From the NCBI RefSeq assembly GCF_003353065.1, contig NZ_CP027806.1, positions 124,001 to 188,000 on the forward strand: a stretch of 64,000 bases of DNA, read 5' to 3'. The notes under the pieces are model-generated. The model was not told the origin of the DNA. It saw only the letters and a list, made by a program, of their open reading frames with translations, and ran no database searches. Position numbers and translations under genes: made by a program. This stretch comes from Cyclonatronum proteinivorum (lineage in GTDB: Bacteria; Bacteroidota; Rhodothermia; Balneolales; Cyclonatronaceae). Below are positions 7,950-63,709 of this stretch, in pieces. Within the stretch, counting starts at the first letter, position 1. Each line of letters begins with the position of its first letter.

Positions 7950-8816
7950 GCTGCTAAAGACAGATTGCGGTACGGAGCGGTACGAAGCAGCACAAAATGA
8001 GACAAAAACAGTAAACATCCTTTCAACATGTGCGTGATCAGCCTGAGCTTCCCGCTTGTAATTCCGGCATAGTTTATAAACCGGAAGCCATACTTCTGAT
8101 CATGGCAATGCCACTGTATTGATTTTATGAGGATGTAATGGGTTCTGGCCGTCCATTATTCAGTATTCATGCCGCGTTCCGCTTGATTGCGGTGAGTATG
8201 ATTTTGGGTTTCACCTTTACGGGCGCAGAGTTATCCGCGCCATAGTAATACTGATCCTCCGGAATACACGCGGTCCGAAGGCCGCCGATTCCTCTTCGGG
8301 CGGAAAAATGCACGAAACGACGGCCTATAAGCTAGTGCAAATCCGGCACAGGATGGTACGCGCTCTGATAACTTATTACCCTGAACATGAGTTTTCAGCT
8401 TCAACGTAGTCCGCCGGAAAATTTCACTTCGTGGGAATCGCTTCGCTCGGTGTGCAGTCTTTACATCACACTCAAATTTGGGCTACCGGTGTTTTTCACT
8501 AAGCCAAATTAAAACTTAGAGTTAGTAAATAAATTCTGTTTAATTGTGAATAATGCGGGGTAGTGGTACAGCTGCTTATTTCCCGTTCAAATTTGTCGAA
8601 CATTTCGGCTGTGCAGCTATCCTGATTTTTTTGTGATTTGGGAAATTTCGCTGACACAGCACAGAAATACAGGGTGAAACGAGCGGTATCAGAGCGGTGA
8701 TGTGACCTAATATCTTATATCGTCTGACAGCTATCAAATCCATTGCCCGCTTCTCCTCCAAACAGGGTATCTTTTGCCGAACTTTTTTATGAATACACGC
8801 CCCACCTTTCTGCACT
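7950..8816. other. Intergenic region holding a family B repeat copy
   Basis: About 870 bp separate the FNT transporter from the ABC-F gene. No credible coding frame is present; a 79-codon frame on the minus strand at 8576-8815 has no recognisable features. The only structure I can support is the copy of dispersed repeat B at 8378-8490. The stretch 8100-8330 is of higher GC and looks gene-like in composition but is broken by stops in every frame, so it could be a decayed gene. Confidence 0.55.
8378..8490 (+). repeat. Dispersed intergenic repeat B, copy 1
   Basis: This stretch aligns with 20143-20285. Shared blocks include ACCCTGA-CATGAGTTTTCAGC, CTTCGTGGGAATCGCT-CGCTCGG and CACACTCAAATTTGGGCTACCGG. 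This copy carries a single GGGAATCGCT-CGCTCGG unit where the other copy carries two, so the element varies internally in tandem number. It lies in non-coding DNA between the FNT transporter and ABC-F genes. Function is unknown. Confidence 0.75.
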
Positions 8817-20072: not shown

Positions 20073-20290
20073 CCCGCATTATTCAACAAGAAATTTTCTT
20101 GCTGGCAAGGCGAAGCTAAAAACTCAGCGGAAGGATACCTTAGTACCCTGAGCATGAGTTTTCAGCCTCAACGCCGCCAGTGGGGAAATTTCGCTGCGAG
20201 GGATTCGCTTCGCTCGGTGCACTTCGTGGGAATCGCTACGCTCGGTGCGCAGTCTTTACACCACACTCAAATTTGGGCTACCGGTTTTTT
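20073..20290 (+). repeat. Dispersed intergenic repeat B, copy 2 (longest)
   Basis: This is the fullest copy in the window. Its left part (20073-20112, GAAATTTTCTTGCTGGCAAGGCGAA) matches 63737-63780, and its right part (from 20143) matches 8378-8490. It contains two tandem units of GGGA-TCGCT-CGCTCGGTGC at about 20210 and 20228, where copy 1 has one. It directly follows the CotH gene stop codon. Confidence 0.75.
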
Positions 20291-20512
20291 GTTGCGTAAC
20301 AACTATGGGTGCTCAGGATGCCGATGAACGTGTCAGACCTTTTCGTAGCACGGGCGGTTGCAGGCTGGTGACGCAAGTATTGCGACGGCTTTTCCGGCGG
20401 GTATATATAGTGTAAAGGCCGCAACAAGCGGTATCGCTCCGGCACTTCTCCGGCAGGGGGTAAACAGACAAAACGCGAAGCTTCGCTTCATAAGCGACGG
20501 CTTACTCCGGAC

Positions 20513-20598
20513 CCAAAAAGCAACGCCCTCAGGTTTGGCTTGGGAGGCCCCGAGCTACCCGCCAAGCTCCTGATGCTCTGTGAGTTTCCCCAAAAAAA
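20513..20598 (+). repeat. Dispersed intergenic repeat A, copy 1
   Basis: It begins CCCAAAAAGCAACGCC and ends GAGTTTCCCCAAAAAAA, the two conserved ends of the family. The internal stem reads GCTTGG...CCAAGC, whereas copies 2 and 3 read GTTTGGG...CCCAAAC, so a base change on one arm is matched by one on the other. It lies between the CotH and NADH dehydrogenase genes. The rest of the 20300-20746 gap shows no gene. Confidence 0.85.
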
Positions 20599-20746
20599 TA
20601 ACGGTACAACGGAGCGCCTGCGCCGCAGGGTCAGGCCGCGGGGCTTGCAAACCGCTTTCAGGAAAAGGAAAATATTGAGGTCTGAATGAATGCCGCACCG
20701 ATGCGGGCTGTTGTGCAGGTAAAACAATCATTTAAGACAAAGAACT

Positions 20747-25195: not shown

Positions 25196-25607
25196 CCTGT
25201 GTGCCCTGTTCACAGCAAAGCACGCATTCAAAACGCCTAAATCACGACAAAGCGGTTAATTGCAAGTCGCCACTTTATCTGATTGAGTGAAGTGAAACAC
25301 CTTCAGCACAAACATGCTGGTCGGGCTTGTGTGGCAGTCAGTCTTTCTGTGAGTACAGCACCGCTCAGGATCTTTTCTTTTGGGGCGTGCGGCTGTTGAC
25401 GGTTTGCCTGCAGTAAGCCGGAATGCTTGCTTGCTGCGGATTGTGTTTCTGTGCAGGAGCCACTTCCGCTTCCAAAAAAGCAACGCTTTAATCTTAGGTT
25501 TGGGAGCGCACAGTCTGCCGCCCAAACTCCTGATGTTCTCTGAGTTTTCCCCAAAAAAAAACAAGGCATAGAAATGGCCGGGAAGCGGGCTTCAGGGCAC
25601 CCTTGAA
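25196..25607. other. Convergent intergenic region
   Basis: About 410 bp lie between the ends of fhs (plus) and an outer-membrane protein gene (minus). Apart from repeat A copy 2 there is nothing recognisable, and no strong terminator hairpin was seen for either gene. Confidence 0.5.
25472..25561 (+). repeat. Dispersed intergenic repeat A, copy 2
   Basis: It begins CCAAAAAAGCAACGC and ends GAGTTTTCCCCAAAAAAAAA. The middle carries the 7-bp inverted repeat GTTTGGG / CCCAAAC. About 60 internal bp are nearly identical to copy 3 on the opposite strand at 31914-32000. Confidence 0.9.
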
Positions 25608-31913: not shown

Positions 31914-32000
31914 TTTTTTTTGGGGAAACTTCGTGAACATCAGGAGTTTGGGCGGCAGACTGTGCGCTCCCAAACCTAAGATGAAGGCGTTGCTTTTTTT
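31914..32000 (-). repeat. Dispersed intergenic repeat A, copy 3
   Basis: Read on the minus strand it runs from CAAAAAAAGCAACGCC to GTTTCCCCAAAAAAAA. The stem GTTTGGG / CCCAAAC and the 16-nt loop are identical to copy 2 at 25472-25561. Confidence 0.9.
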
Positions 32001-36366: not shown

Positions 36367-36452
36367 CCAAAAAGCAAGGAGACATGTGATCGTTTTGGGA
36401 TGGCAGCACAAGCACGAAAGACCGTGACGCTCTCGGAGTTCCCCCAAAAAAA
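36367..36452 (+). repeat. Dispersed intergenic repeat A, copy 4
   Basis: The ends CCAAAAAGCAAGG and GGAGTTCCCCCAAAAAAA match the family. The interior belongs to the subtype containing GCACGAAAGACCGTGA, shared with copies 5 and 7. It sits between the two arrays of GGTGA boxes. The rest of 36256-36590 shows no supported gene. Confidence 0.8.
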
Positions 36453-36590
36453 CAAAGTGTAAGAAATGCCAACAACGCTGATTCCGAATACTGAGCGAGT
36501 TCACATAAAAACCGGGCTCACGTTCGGTTGCAAAACCTGCCCGGGCTCCAATTTTCGGTTAAACCCTTCTCACTTCTCTTCATATCTTCC

Positions 36591-48368: not shown

Positions 48369-48483
48369 GATTGTTGGATGATGATGTTTGGCTTCAACGG
48401 AAATATTCGAAACCAGATAAGACTTCCCAGTCTCTTTCTTTTAATGTGATGTATGTGTTCAAGCTTCTGAAGTGGGTCATGCC

Positions 48484-48572
48484 CCAAAAAAGCAAGGGAT
48501 TCATCTTTGACTTGGGGCCTCCGATCTACTGCGAAAGACCTTGATGTTCTCGGAGTTTTACCCAAAAAAAAA
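48484..48572 (+). repeat. Dispersed intergenic repeat A, copy 5
   Basis: It runs from CCAAAAAAGCAAGG to GAGTTTTACCCAAAAAAAAA and is of the GCGAAAGACC subtype, like copies 4 and 7. It lies between convergent genes (GDSL lipoprotein and FecA-like receptor), between their two terminators. The rest of this 400-bp gap has no gene. Confidence 0.85.
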
Positions 48573-48628
48573 TGACAGAAAAACCTGCTTAGGCTGCCGG
48601 TCGCAGGCCTGCACATGCGGAAATGGGT

Positions 48629-52849: not shown

Positions 52850-52936
52850 TTTTTTTGGGGAAAACTCCGTGAACATCAGGAGCTTGGGCGACAGATTGAG
52901 AACCCCCAAACCTGCGCGAGACGCCTTGCTTTTTGG
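52850..52936 (-). repeat. Dispersed intergenic repeat A, copy 6
   Basis: On the minus strand it reads CCAAAAAGCAAGGCG ... CGGAGTTTTCCCCAAAAAAA. The stem is GTTTGGG / CCCAAGC, one G-T pair relative to copies 2 and 3. It follows the hemG stop by about 50 bp. Confidence 0.88.
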
Positions 52937-54500: not shown

Positions 54501-54570
54501 TTAAGCGTACGTGAAATAAAAAACCGGTCTAAAATGAACACAATCATAGATTATGGCATTCCGGGCGGGT
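54501..54570 (+). repeat. ~70-bp direct repeat, left copy, flanking the TA cassette
   Basis: TTAAGCGTAC-TGAAATAAAAAA, then ATGAACACAATCATAGATTA and TGGCATTCCGGGCGGGT recur at 55341-55412 in the same orientation. Over its last 40 bp the match is perfect; the middle differs by about seven bases and two single-base indels. The copies bracket the toxin-antitoxin genes. Confidence 0.88.
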
Positions 54571-54632
54571 TTACAGCAACAGCTAACAGATAAACAATAA
54601 AGCAGAATTAAACTACCTGAAAACAAGGGGCG

Positions 54633-54905
54633 CTACTTCTTATCGTAAATATCTCTTCTATGCCCAATCCGAACAACCAAAATGAGCACTTTATCATCCT
54701 GAATTTGGCAGATAATCCGATAATCATTGACCCGGTAGCGCCATAACCCTTTCATCCGCCCTTTAAGAGAACTCCCCATTCTTTGTGGATCGTTGTCAGT
54801 TGACAAATTATCACGCATCCATTTCAGAATTCTATCCTGTGTTGCAACGTCTAATTTCCGGAGCTCTTTTCGAGCGCGGTTATCAAACTCAACCCTCCAG
54901 GTCAT
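54633..54905 (-). CDS. RelE/ParE family toxin
   Basis: This 90-residue protein has the RelE fold signature: W-R-V-E-F-x(5)-K-E-L-R-K-L-D at the start, a central LKGRMKGLWRYRVNDYRIICQI, and the C-terminal ILVVRIGHRRDIYDK. RelE toxins cut mRNA in the ribosome, ParE toxins poison gyrase; sequence alone does not settle which, but the GLWRYRVNDYRIIC form with the terminal R-x-D-I-Y is usual for RelE types. It overlaps the antitoxin gene by 17 bp, as expected for a coupled pair. Both lie inside the direct-repeat bracket. Confidence 0.93.
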   Translation of the reverse strand: MTWRVEFDNRARKELRKLDVATQDRILKWMRDNLSTDNDPQRMGSSLKGRMKGLWRYRVNDYRIICQIQDDKVLILVVRIGHRRDIYDKK

Positions 54906-55107
54906 CTCTCCGCTCTAATTGTTCCAAACTCCAGTTTTTGCTTTCGGGTTGCTCAAGGCGACGTTCAGCTACATACAAATCTTCCAGATCATCCAATTTT
55001 TCTTCCAGCGCCTGACGGACAAAAGATGATTTGGTACGACCGGTCTGTTTGGCAAGTTTATGAAGCCGCTTTTTTAAAACTGAGTCCAGTCTGATTGTGA
55101 TTGACAT
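54889..55107 (-). CDS. Ribbon-helix-helix antitoxin
   Basis: This 72-residue protein has an N-terminal ribbon-helix-helix DNA-binding fold (SITIRLDSVLKKRLHKLAKQ then RTKSSFVRQALEEKL) and a charged C-terminal tail that would wrap the toxin. It is the first gene of the pair. Such antitoxins repress their own promoter, here in the AT-rich 55108-55150 region; I see no clear operator palindrome there. Confidence 0.92.
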   Translation of the reverse strand: MSITIRLDSVLKKRLHKLAKQTGRTKSSFVRQALEEKLDDLEDLYVAERRLEQPESKNWSLEQLERRDDLEG

Positions 55108-55340
55108 AAAAAAACGTGTTAATATCCTTATAAAGCTGTAGAGTTAAGATATGTTTTTCCTTCGACCGCATGAATTTAAAAAAGCCCGATTTGATGATTT
55201 TGTGGACTCAGCTTTGCGGTGAAAATGAGCCGCTTCTTGATAGGTTTTTTTGCCACAGCGTCACTTTCTGACAGTGGAGGTACTAAAGGGCAGAGCTGTA
55301 GCTTAAATAAATGACCCGGCTGAACTACTAACCCATAGAT

Positions 55341-55412
55341 TTAAGCGTACATGAAATAAAAAAACCCCGCACAAAATGAACACAATCATAGATTATGGCA
55401 TTCCGGGCGGGT
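55341..55412 (+). repeat. ~70-bp direct repeat, right copy, flanking the TA cassette
   Basis: This copy lies 57 bp beyond the 3' end of metK. It matches 54501-54570 in the same orientation, with the final 40 bp identical (ACACAATCATAGATTATGGC then ATTCCGGGCGGGT). The stretch 55108-55340, between the antitoxin and this repeat, contains no gene. Confidence 0.88.
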
Positions 55413-55469: not shown

Positions 55470-56618
55470 TTACAAAGCGTTGCTGATCTTATCGGTGTAA
55501 TCCAACTGTTCCCAGGGGAATTCAGCGCGGCCAAAGTGACCGTAAGCCGCAGTGGGCCGGAAAATCGGGCGGTTCAGACCAAAGCGTGTGATGATCCCGG
55601 ATGGGGTGCAGTCGAATACGCGGCTTACAGCATCAGCAAGCTCAACATCGCTTACCTTGCCTGTACCGTAGGTATTTACAGATATGGAAACCGGATCAAC
55701 AACCCCGATAGCGTAGGCGAGCTGAACAAGGCAGTTTTCAGCAAGCTCTGCCGCAACAATGTTCTTGGCAATATGACGTGCCGCATAGGCCGCCGACCGG
55801 TCCACCTTGGTGGAATCTTTCCCGGAGAAAGCACCGCCACCATGCGCCCCGTGCCCGCCGTAGGTATCCACAATAATTTTGCGGCCGGTCAGGCCGGAAT
55901 CGCCGTGCGGTCCGCCAATTACAAATTTCCCGGTAGGGTTGATGAACATTTTGGTATCAGCATCGAGCAGATTCCCGGGGATTACTTTTTCAATAAGATT
56001 GGCCTTTACTTCGCGGCGAATTTCTTCCTGCGAAATGCCATCATCGTGCTGTGTGGATAACACGATAGCATCGATACGAAGCGGGTTTCCGTTTTCATCG
56101 TTTTCGATGGTCACCTGACTCTTGCTGTCCGGTGCCAGCCAGGTCATGATTTTGCCGGCTTTACGAATGGCAGATAATTCCCGCACAAGGTCATGCGCCA
56201 GCTGAATGCTCAGCGGCATATAGGTTTCGGTTTCTTTGCAGGCATATCCAAACATCATCCCCTGATCGCCTGCACCAATATCTTTCTTGTCGTTTTTATC
56301 CACACCCATTGCGATGTCATCGCTTTGCTGATGTATAGCCGAAATAACCCCGCATGAGTCTGCATCGAACCGGTAACTGCTTTTGGTGTAGCCAATTTCA
56401 CGAATGGTTTCGCGTACGATTTCCTGCACGTCCACATAGCTGTTGGTTCGTACTTCACCGGCAACTACGGCAAGGCCGGTGGTAACAAGGGTTTCGACTG
56501 CGACTCTTGAATCCGGGTCCTTATCCAGCATGGCATCGAGAATGGCATCTGAAATCTGATCTGCAACTTTATCCGGGTGCCCTTCTGAAACAGACTCGGA
56601 GGTAAATAGTTTTTTCAT
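55470..56618 (-). CDS. metK: S-adenosylmethionine synthetase
   Basis: This 382-residue protein has SEGHPDK at residues 11-17 binding ATP phosphates, the signature [12 protein letters not shown], and [23 protein letters not shown]. The enzyme makes SAM from methionine and ATP, releasing phosphate and pyrophosphate. Length and motif order are normal. The 177-bp leader shows no SAM riboswitch. Three SAM-dependent or SAM-like methyltransferases occur elsewhere in the window, without operon linkage. Confidence 0.98.
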
Positions 56619-63622: not shown

Positions 63623-63709
63623 TTTTTTTGGGGGAAAACTCCGTGAACATCACGGTCTTTCGTGATATTTCATAGCCCCCAAACCTAAGATGAACGCCTT
63701 GCTTTTGGG
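63623..63709 (-). repeat. Dispersed intergenic repeat A, copy 7
   Basis: On the minus strand it reads CCCAAAAGCAAGGCG ... CGGAGTTTTCCCCCAAAAAAA, of the CACGAAAGACCG subtype. The right half contains a perfect hairpin CCGTGA-TGT-TCACGG. Confidence 0.88.

What the first reader, a model, noticed from the sequence alone, without database searches (positions are those of the whole stretch)
54501..55412. RelE/RHH toxin-antitoxin pair bracketed by ~70-bp direct repeats
Near-identical direct repeats at 54501-54570 and 55341-55412 flank a toxin-antitoxin cassette of about 770 bp between metK and the metallophosphoesterase gene. This looks like insertion or a recombination-prone cassette: a crossover between the repeats would delete the toxin-antitoxin genes and leave one repeat. 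The repeats are diverged in the middle, so the event is not recent. I know of no such bracket as a standard feature of RelE pairs.
Basis: partly seen in the sequence, partly recalled or inferred. Interest (0 to 1): 0.6.

Follow-up and report, generated by a model that had tools for sequence, protein, structure and literature searches.

The report
Toxin-antitoxin pair between duplicated metK terminators
A small toxin-antitoxin gene pair was inserted just behind the metK gene in this bacterium, and the 70-base repeats around it are two copies of metK's own transcription stop signal, a tidy example of gene capture but probably a one-off rather than a new mobile element.

Summary
Two 70/72-bp direct repeats (54501-54570, 55341-55412; 90% identical, 40 bp exact) bracket 770 bp with a RelE/StbE toxin and an RHH antitoxin. 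The repeat occurs only twice in the 4.29-Mb genome. It is metK's intrinsic terminator, read on the minus strand. The closest relative held (G005) has metK followed by the phosphoesterase gene, no TA pair and one homologous terminator: the predicted empty site. Seven of seven relatives with both genes lack the pair there. The pair is therefore most simply an insertion in this lineage that left a terminator on each side: the metK-proximal copy folds well (-21.9 kcal/mol), the distal copy is decayed (-10.8). The bracket is not a habit of this TA family: of 11 related loci none shows a long single-copy bracket (one lies between copies of a dispersed repeat, one has a 27-bp repeat of unclear meaning). 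Integron attC and XerC/D (dif/pdif) sites were tested as explanations; neither is supported. How the terminator was duplicated is not shown. Ongoing loss by crossover is possible but there is no evidence for it. Modest interest: an ordinary TA pair with a neat insertion scar.

The parts
55341..55412 (-). metK-proximal repeat copy = metK intrinsic terminator (hairpin plus T-run)
   Evidence: Lies 58 bp past the metK stop; folds at -21.9 kcal/mol, z -4.4, 0 of 200 shuffles as good; homologous to the single terminator of G005
54501..54570 (-). distal repeat copy, a partly decayed terminator hairpin 63 bp past the toxin stop
   Evidence: 90% identical to the proximal copy; folds at -10.8 kcal/mol, z -1.7
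54571..55340 (-). inserted 770-bp stretch (TA operon plus about 230 bp upstream and 62 bp downstream)
   Evidence: Absent between metK and the phosphoesterase gene in 7 of 7 relatives; single copy in the genome; 41.6% GC against 51.6% for the window
54889..55107 (-). RHH antitoxin, RelB-like, 72 aa
   Evidence: PF01402/PF19807, NF048017
54633..54905 (-). RelE/StbE (ParE superfamily) toxin, 90 aa
   Evidence: PF05016, TIGR02385; nearest solved chain 2khe, E 2.7e-25
55470..56618 (-). metK, S-adenosylmethionine synthetase (host gene upstream of the insertion)
   Evidence: PF00438/PF02772/PF02773
53046..54404 (-). metallophosphoesterase (host gene downstream)
   Evidence: PF00149; adjacent to metK in 7 relatives

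Best explanation
A horizontally acquired type II RelE/RHH toxin-antitoxin operon was inserted between metK and the metallophosphoesterase gene in this lineage, at metK's intrinsic terminator, and the event left a copy of the terminator on each side. The upstream copy still ends metK transcription; the downstream copy sits where it would end the TA message and shield the next gene, so the insertion disturbs neither neighbour. Shown: the repeat is metK's terminator, the TA-free single-terminator arrangement exists in the closest relative, and absence is the rule in the genus. Inferred: that it was gained rather than lost many times, that one event made both insertion and duplication, that both hairpins terminate, and that the pair works as an ordinary RelBE mRNA-interferase module. 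The molecular route of the duplication is not determined; capture by recombination at the terminator (illegitimate joining with a long duplicated target, or a single crossover with a circle carrying a terminator copy) is the simplest reading.
For: Empty sites in 7 of 7 relatives that hold both genes on the fetched locus. G005's intergenic region aligns to the window with one terminator and to both flanks once the TA pair is taken out; BLAST places G005's hairpin on both window copies at 80% and 78%. The two copies (90%) resemble each other more than either resembles G005's, so the duplication looks younger than that split. The terminators of G000, G005, G004, G002 and G008 share a GGAATG motif on the 5' arm and all fold strongly. 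The TA pair of the same-genus genome G003 is at another place and is not sister to this one in the tree, which fits separate acquisition. Relatives are on 951 plasmid and 90 phage records. Insert GC is 10 points below the window.
Against: Only G005 has a clearly alignable single copy of this hairpin; the other empty sites have terminators too diverged to align throughout. No strain-level relatives were available, so insertion and duplication could be separate events. The TA tree is poorly resolved and G000 has a long branch.
Confidence: 0.75

Rival explanations
1. Remnant of an integrative element: a tyrosine recombinase used the metK terminator as its attachment site, the repeats are attL and attR, and all but the TA pair was later lost.
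For: Direct repeats at a gene's 3' end around foreign DNA are what such integration leaves; the core of the repeat is an imperfect palindrome; the copies differ by 10%, as attB and attP might.
Against: No integrase in the 770-bp insert; the palindrome is already explained as a terminator present in TA-free relatives; no other copy of the site in six genus genomes.
Confidence: 0.1
2. Two steps: the TA pair inserted just past the terminator, and the terminator was later copied behind the toxin by local duplication or gene conversion.
For: Nothing in the data orders the two events; a terminator behind the toxin would be useful.
Against: Needs an extra event, and the flank right of the distal copy (CGCAATAATCCG) still resembles the flank right of G005's single terminator (TGCAATAAACCG), as expected if the repeat is a duplicated target.
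Confidence: 0.12
3. XerC/XerD (dif/pdif) module, like the TA dif modules of Acinetobacter plasmids.
For: Against the proteobacterial dif consensus G005's hairpin scores 18 of 21 with a 7-bp spacer, above every placement in a 464-kb sample; the G000 copy ranks first of 88 terminator-like hairpins. A TA dif module of 768 bp is reported in Acinetobacter (PMC6449649).
Against: The genus has its own dif-like site, TGTTTTATAA-TATATA-TTATGTTAAGT, conserved in four genomes. Against it the terminators score only 13 and 14 of 22, within chance for a site of this length. The spacer is 7, not 6, and the identity spans 72 bp, well beyond a 28-bp site.
Confidence: 0.02

Closest known systems
Chromosomal type II RelBE / RelE-StbE toxin-antitoxin modules with an RHH (RelB-like) antitoxin
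   Same: Gene order, overlap, sizes, families, patchy distribution and links to plasmids and phages
   Different: Bracketed by a duplicated host terminator, which none of 11 related loci shows as a long single-copy repeat
Acinetobacter dif (pdif) modules carrying TA pairs (PMC6449649)
   Same: A single TA pair of about 770 bp between two direct-orientation sites, no transposase
   Different: Sites here are 70-72-bp terminators, not 28-bp XerC/D sites, and do not match the genus's own dif-like site
Integrative elements with attachment sites at gene 3' ends
   Same: Direct repeats of a host gene's 3' region on both sides of foreign DNA
   Different: No integrase or other element genes

Membership tests
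RelE/StbE type II TA module | Toxin of RelE/ParE superfamily | tested here: met
   TIGR02385 42.6 bits over cut-off 27.9; PF05016
RelE/StbE type II TA module | Cognate small DNA-binding antitoxin directly upstream in one operon | tested here: met
   RHH/RelB-like 72 aa, 17-bp overlap
RelE/StbE type II TA module | Toxicity neutralised by the antitoxin | not testable with these tools
   Needs an expression assay
Intrinsic terminator | G+C-rich hairpin followed by a T-run downstream of a gene, present in relatives | tested here: met
   met strongly for the proximal copy, weakly for the distal
dif/pdif (XerC/D) module | 28-bp sites with XerC arm, 6-bp spacer, XerD arm matching the host dif | tested here: not met
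   13 of 22 against the genus dif-like site, chance level, 7-bp spacer
Integron gene cassette | attC with RYYYAAC and GTTRRRY boxes at the repeat ends | tested here: not met
   Repeat ends read TAAACCCGCC and GCTTAAATC, neither box present; no integrase match over the cut-off, only broken pieces about 570 kb away
Integrative element with att sites | Recombinase and att core | tested here: inconclusive
   No recombinase gene in the insert; direct repeats present
Dispersed intergenic repeat | Many copies in the genome | tested here: not met
   Two copies only; most other local repeats sampled have 3 to 23 copies

The most novel reading that the evidence does not exclude
A transposase-free TA cassette that enters chromosomes at a gene's intrinsic terminator through a recombinase that recognises the terminator palindrome, duplicating it, so that the host gene keeps its stop signal and the newcomer gains one.
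Probability: 0.06. Interest if true: 0.6.

Novelty: new member of a known kind. Interest (0 to 1): 0.27.

Why it matters
How chromosomal TA pairs move without a transposase is poorly documented. Here the empty site, the filled site and the duplicated sequence are all in hand, and the duplicated sequence is a likely functional signal rather than a random target. It is one clean case, not a rule: related loci do not show it.

Tried and rejected
Dispersed element: rejected, two copies only. Bracket as a habit of the TA family: L046's 47-bp repeat is a dispersed element with 21 copies in its genome; L051's (a 31%-identical homolog, not one of the 11) looks like a dispersed repeat from its sequence (not counted); L059's 27-bp repeat has a core found exactly only twice in its genome, but the rpsF upstream regions of seven relatives do not show a homologous single copy, so it is left open. 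XerC/D site: looked strong against the proteobacterial consensus, fell to chance against the genus's own dif-like site. Integron cassette: no attC boxes, integrase only in pieces elsewhere. Rfam: nothing credible in the region. The simple terminator scan does not list these hairpins, presumably because they hold internal mismatches and bulges that it does not allow. Literature searches for TA pairs bracketed by direct repeats gave islands and ICEs, no such terminator bracket; the library is open-access only.

Full report
What is there. On the minus strand, in order of transcription: metK (56618-55470), a hairpin with T-run (55412-55341), 233 bp of spacer, an RHH antitoxin (55107-54889), an overlapping RelE/StbE toxin (54905-54633), 62 bp, a second copy of the hairpin (54570-54501), and a metallophosphoesterase gene (54404-53046). 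They are 90% identical over 72 columns with a 40-bp exact core; the core with up to 3 mismatches occurs nowhere else in the window, with none expected by chance, and the repeat occurs only twice in the 4.29-Mb genome.

Chance and background. In a 464-kb sample of this genome (window plus twenty 20-kb stretches) other local direct repeats of at least 40 bp and 80% identity exist, but all except one belong to families with 3 to 23 copies in the sample; only this pair and one A+T-rich 58-bp pair (82%) are limited to two copies. So the bracket is specific to this place.

What the repeat is. It begins 58 bp past the metK stop. As RNA on the metK strand, the proximal copy folds into a hairpin of -21.9 kcal/mol followed by seven U (0 of 200 shuffles as good); the distal copy folds at -10.8. 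In the closest relative held, G005 (metK 93%, phosphoesterase 77% identical), the single intergenic hairpin aligns with the repeat: -27.5 kcal/mol, with inner-stem changes that keep pairing (CC..GG in G005, TC..GA here). Relatives G004, G002 and G008 have strong hairpins at the same place with a shared GGAATG on the 5' arm; G001 has a plain terminator. The repeat is therefore metK's intrinsic terminator.

Empty site. In all seven genus and family relatives for which both genes were on the fetched locus (G001-G005, G008, G009), metK is followed directly by the phosphoesterase gene with no TA pair. G005 matches the window's flanks when the TA pair and one repeat are taken out. The two window copies are closer to each other (90%) than to G005's (78-80%), so the duplication looks younger than that split. 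Parsimony gives insertion in this lineage.

Origin of the TA pair. The closest relatives by identity are in Balneolaceae (76-79% for the toxin), closer than the same-genus copy in G003 (73%), which lies between other genes. G000 and G003 are not sisters in the tree (2% of bootstrap trees), though the tree is weak. Homologs are on 951 plasmid and 90 phage records. DNA similarity to relatives is confined to the two genes. The insert is 41.6% GC in a 51.6% window. This fits horizontal gain of an ordinary TA pair.

Is the bracket a family habit? Eleven distinct related loci (57-79% toxin identity) were examined. Nine have no flanking direct repeat better than E = 0.01. One (L046) lies between copies of an element with 21 copies in its genome. 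One (L059) has a 27-bp repeat whose core is exact only at those two places in its genome; the relatives' sequence there is too diverged to tell. So the terminator bracket is, on present evidence, a one-off.

Site-specific recombination tested. The hairpin resembles the proteobacterial dif consensus (G005 18 of 21, G000 15 of 21; best of 88 terminator-like hairpins), which suggested a dif module like the 768-bp TA dif module of Acinetobacter (PMC6449649). I then found a dif-like site in this genus, TGTTTTATAA-TATATA-TTATGTTAAGT, nearly the same in four genomes while its flanks differ. Against that site the metK hairpins score 13 and 14 of 22, which is chance level. The idea is dropped. An integron cassette is not supported either: no attC boxes, and the integrase matches are below-cut-off pieces elsewhere.

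How it most likely works. The insertion landed just past, or within, the metK terminator, and a terminator copy ended up on each side. metK keeps its stop; the distal copy can stop the TA message and shield the next gene, which would make the insertion nearly neutral. That last part is inference. The TA pair itself is expected to act as other RelBE modules do (mRNA cleavage by RelE restrained by the antitoxin; general knowledge of the family); family membership by sequence is met, activity is untested. Whether the repeats recombine now is unknown: 70 bp with a 40-bp identical core could support rare loss, but no deleted form was seen.

Noticed in passing
G000:C1 about 2307630-2307657 (L111); L112, L113, L114: Probable chromosomal dif of this genus, TGTTTTATAA-TATATA-TTATGTTAAGT, conserved in four genomes with unrelated flanks; near a GC-skew switch around 2.1 Mb in the 20-kb samples.
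   Followed up: partly
G000:C1:753005-757928 (L076-L078): Broken pieces matching an integron-type integrase (TIGR02249, two N-terminal parts and one C-terminal part, one with a stop), a possible degraded integron.
   Followed up: no
window 20512-20602, 25472-25562, 31914-31998, 36413-36465, 48483-48573, 52850-52934, 63623-63707: Family of roughly 85-91-bp dispersed intergenic repeats in both orientations (TTTTTTTGGGGAAA...GTGAACATCAGGAG...CCTTGCTTTTT).
   Followed up: no
L090:3135-4857 (G000 about 2.323 Mb): A 150-aa ORF that looks like an IS200/Y1 transposase sits between 440-bp direct repeats built from a dispersed family (CCCTGAAAGGGCGACATA...GGGGCGGCATATC), 23 matches in the 464-kb sample.
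   Followed up: no
L059:1161-1187 and about 1806-1827: TA pair of G059 is flanked by a 27-bp direct repeat whose 14-bp core occurs exactly only twice in that genome; could be a second insertion scar.
   Followed up: partly
window 8367-8495 and 20134-20290: Two-part direct repeat (83-94% identical) 11.8 kb apart; the same sequence type (CGCAGTCTTTACACCACACCC) recurs in other sampled stretches.
   Followed up: no
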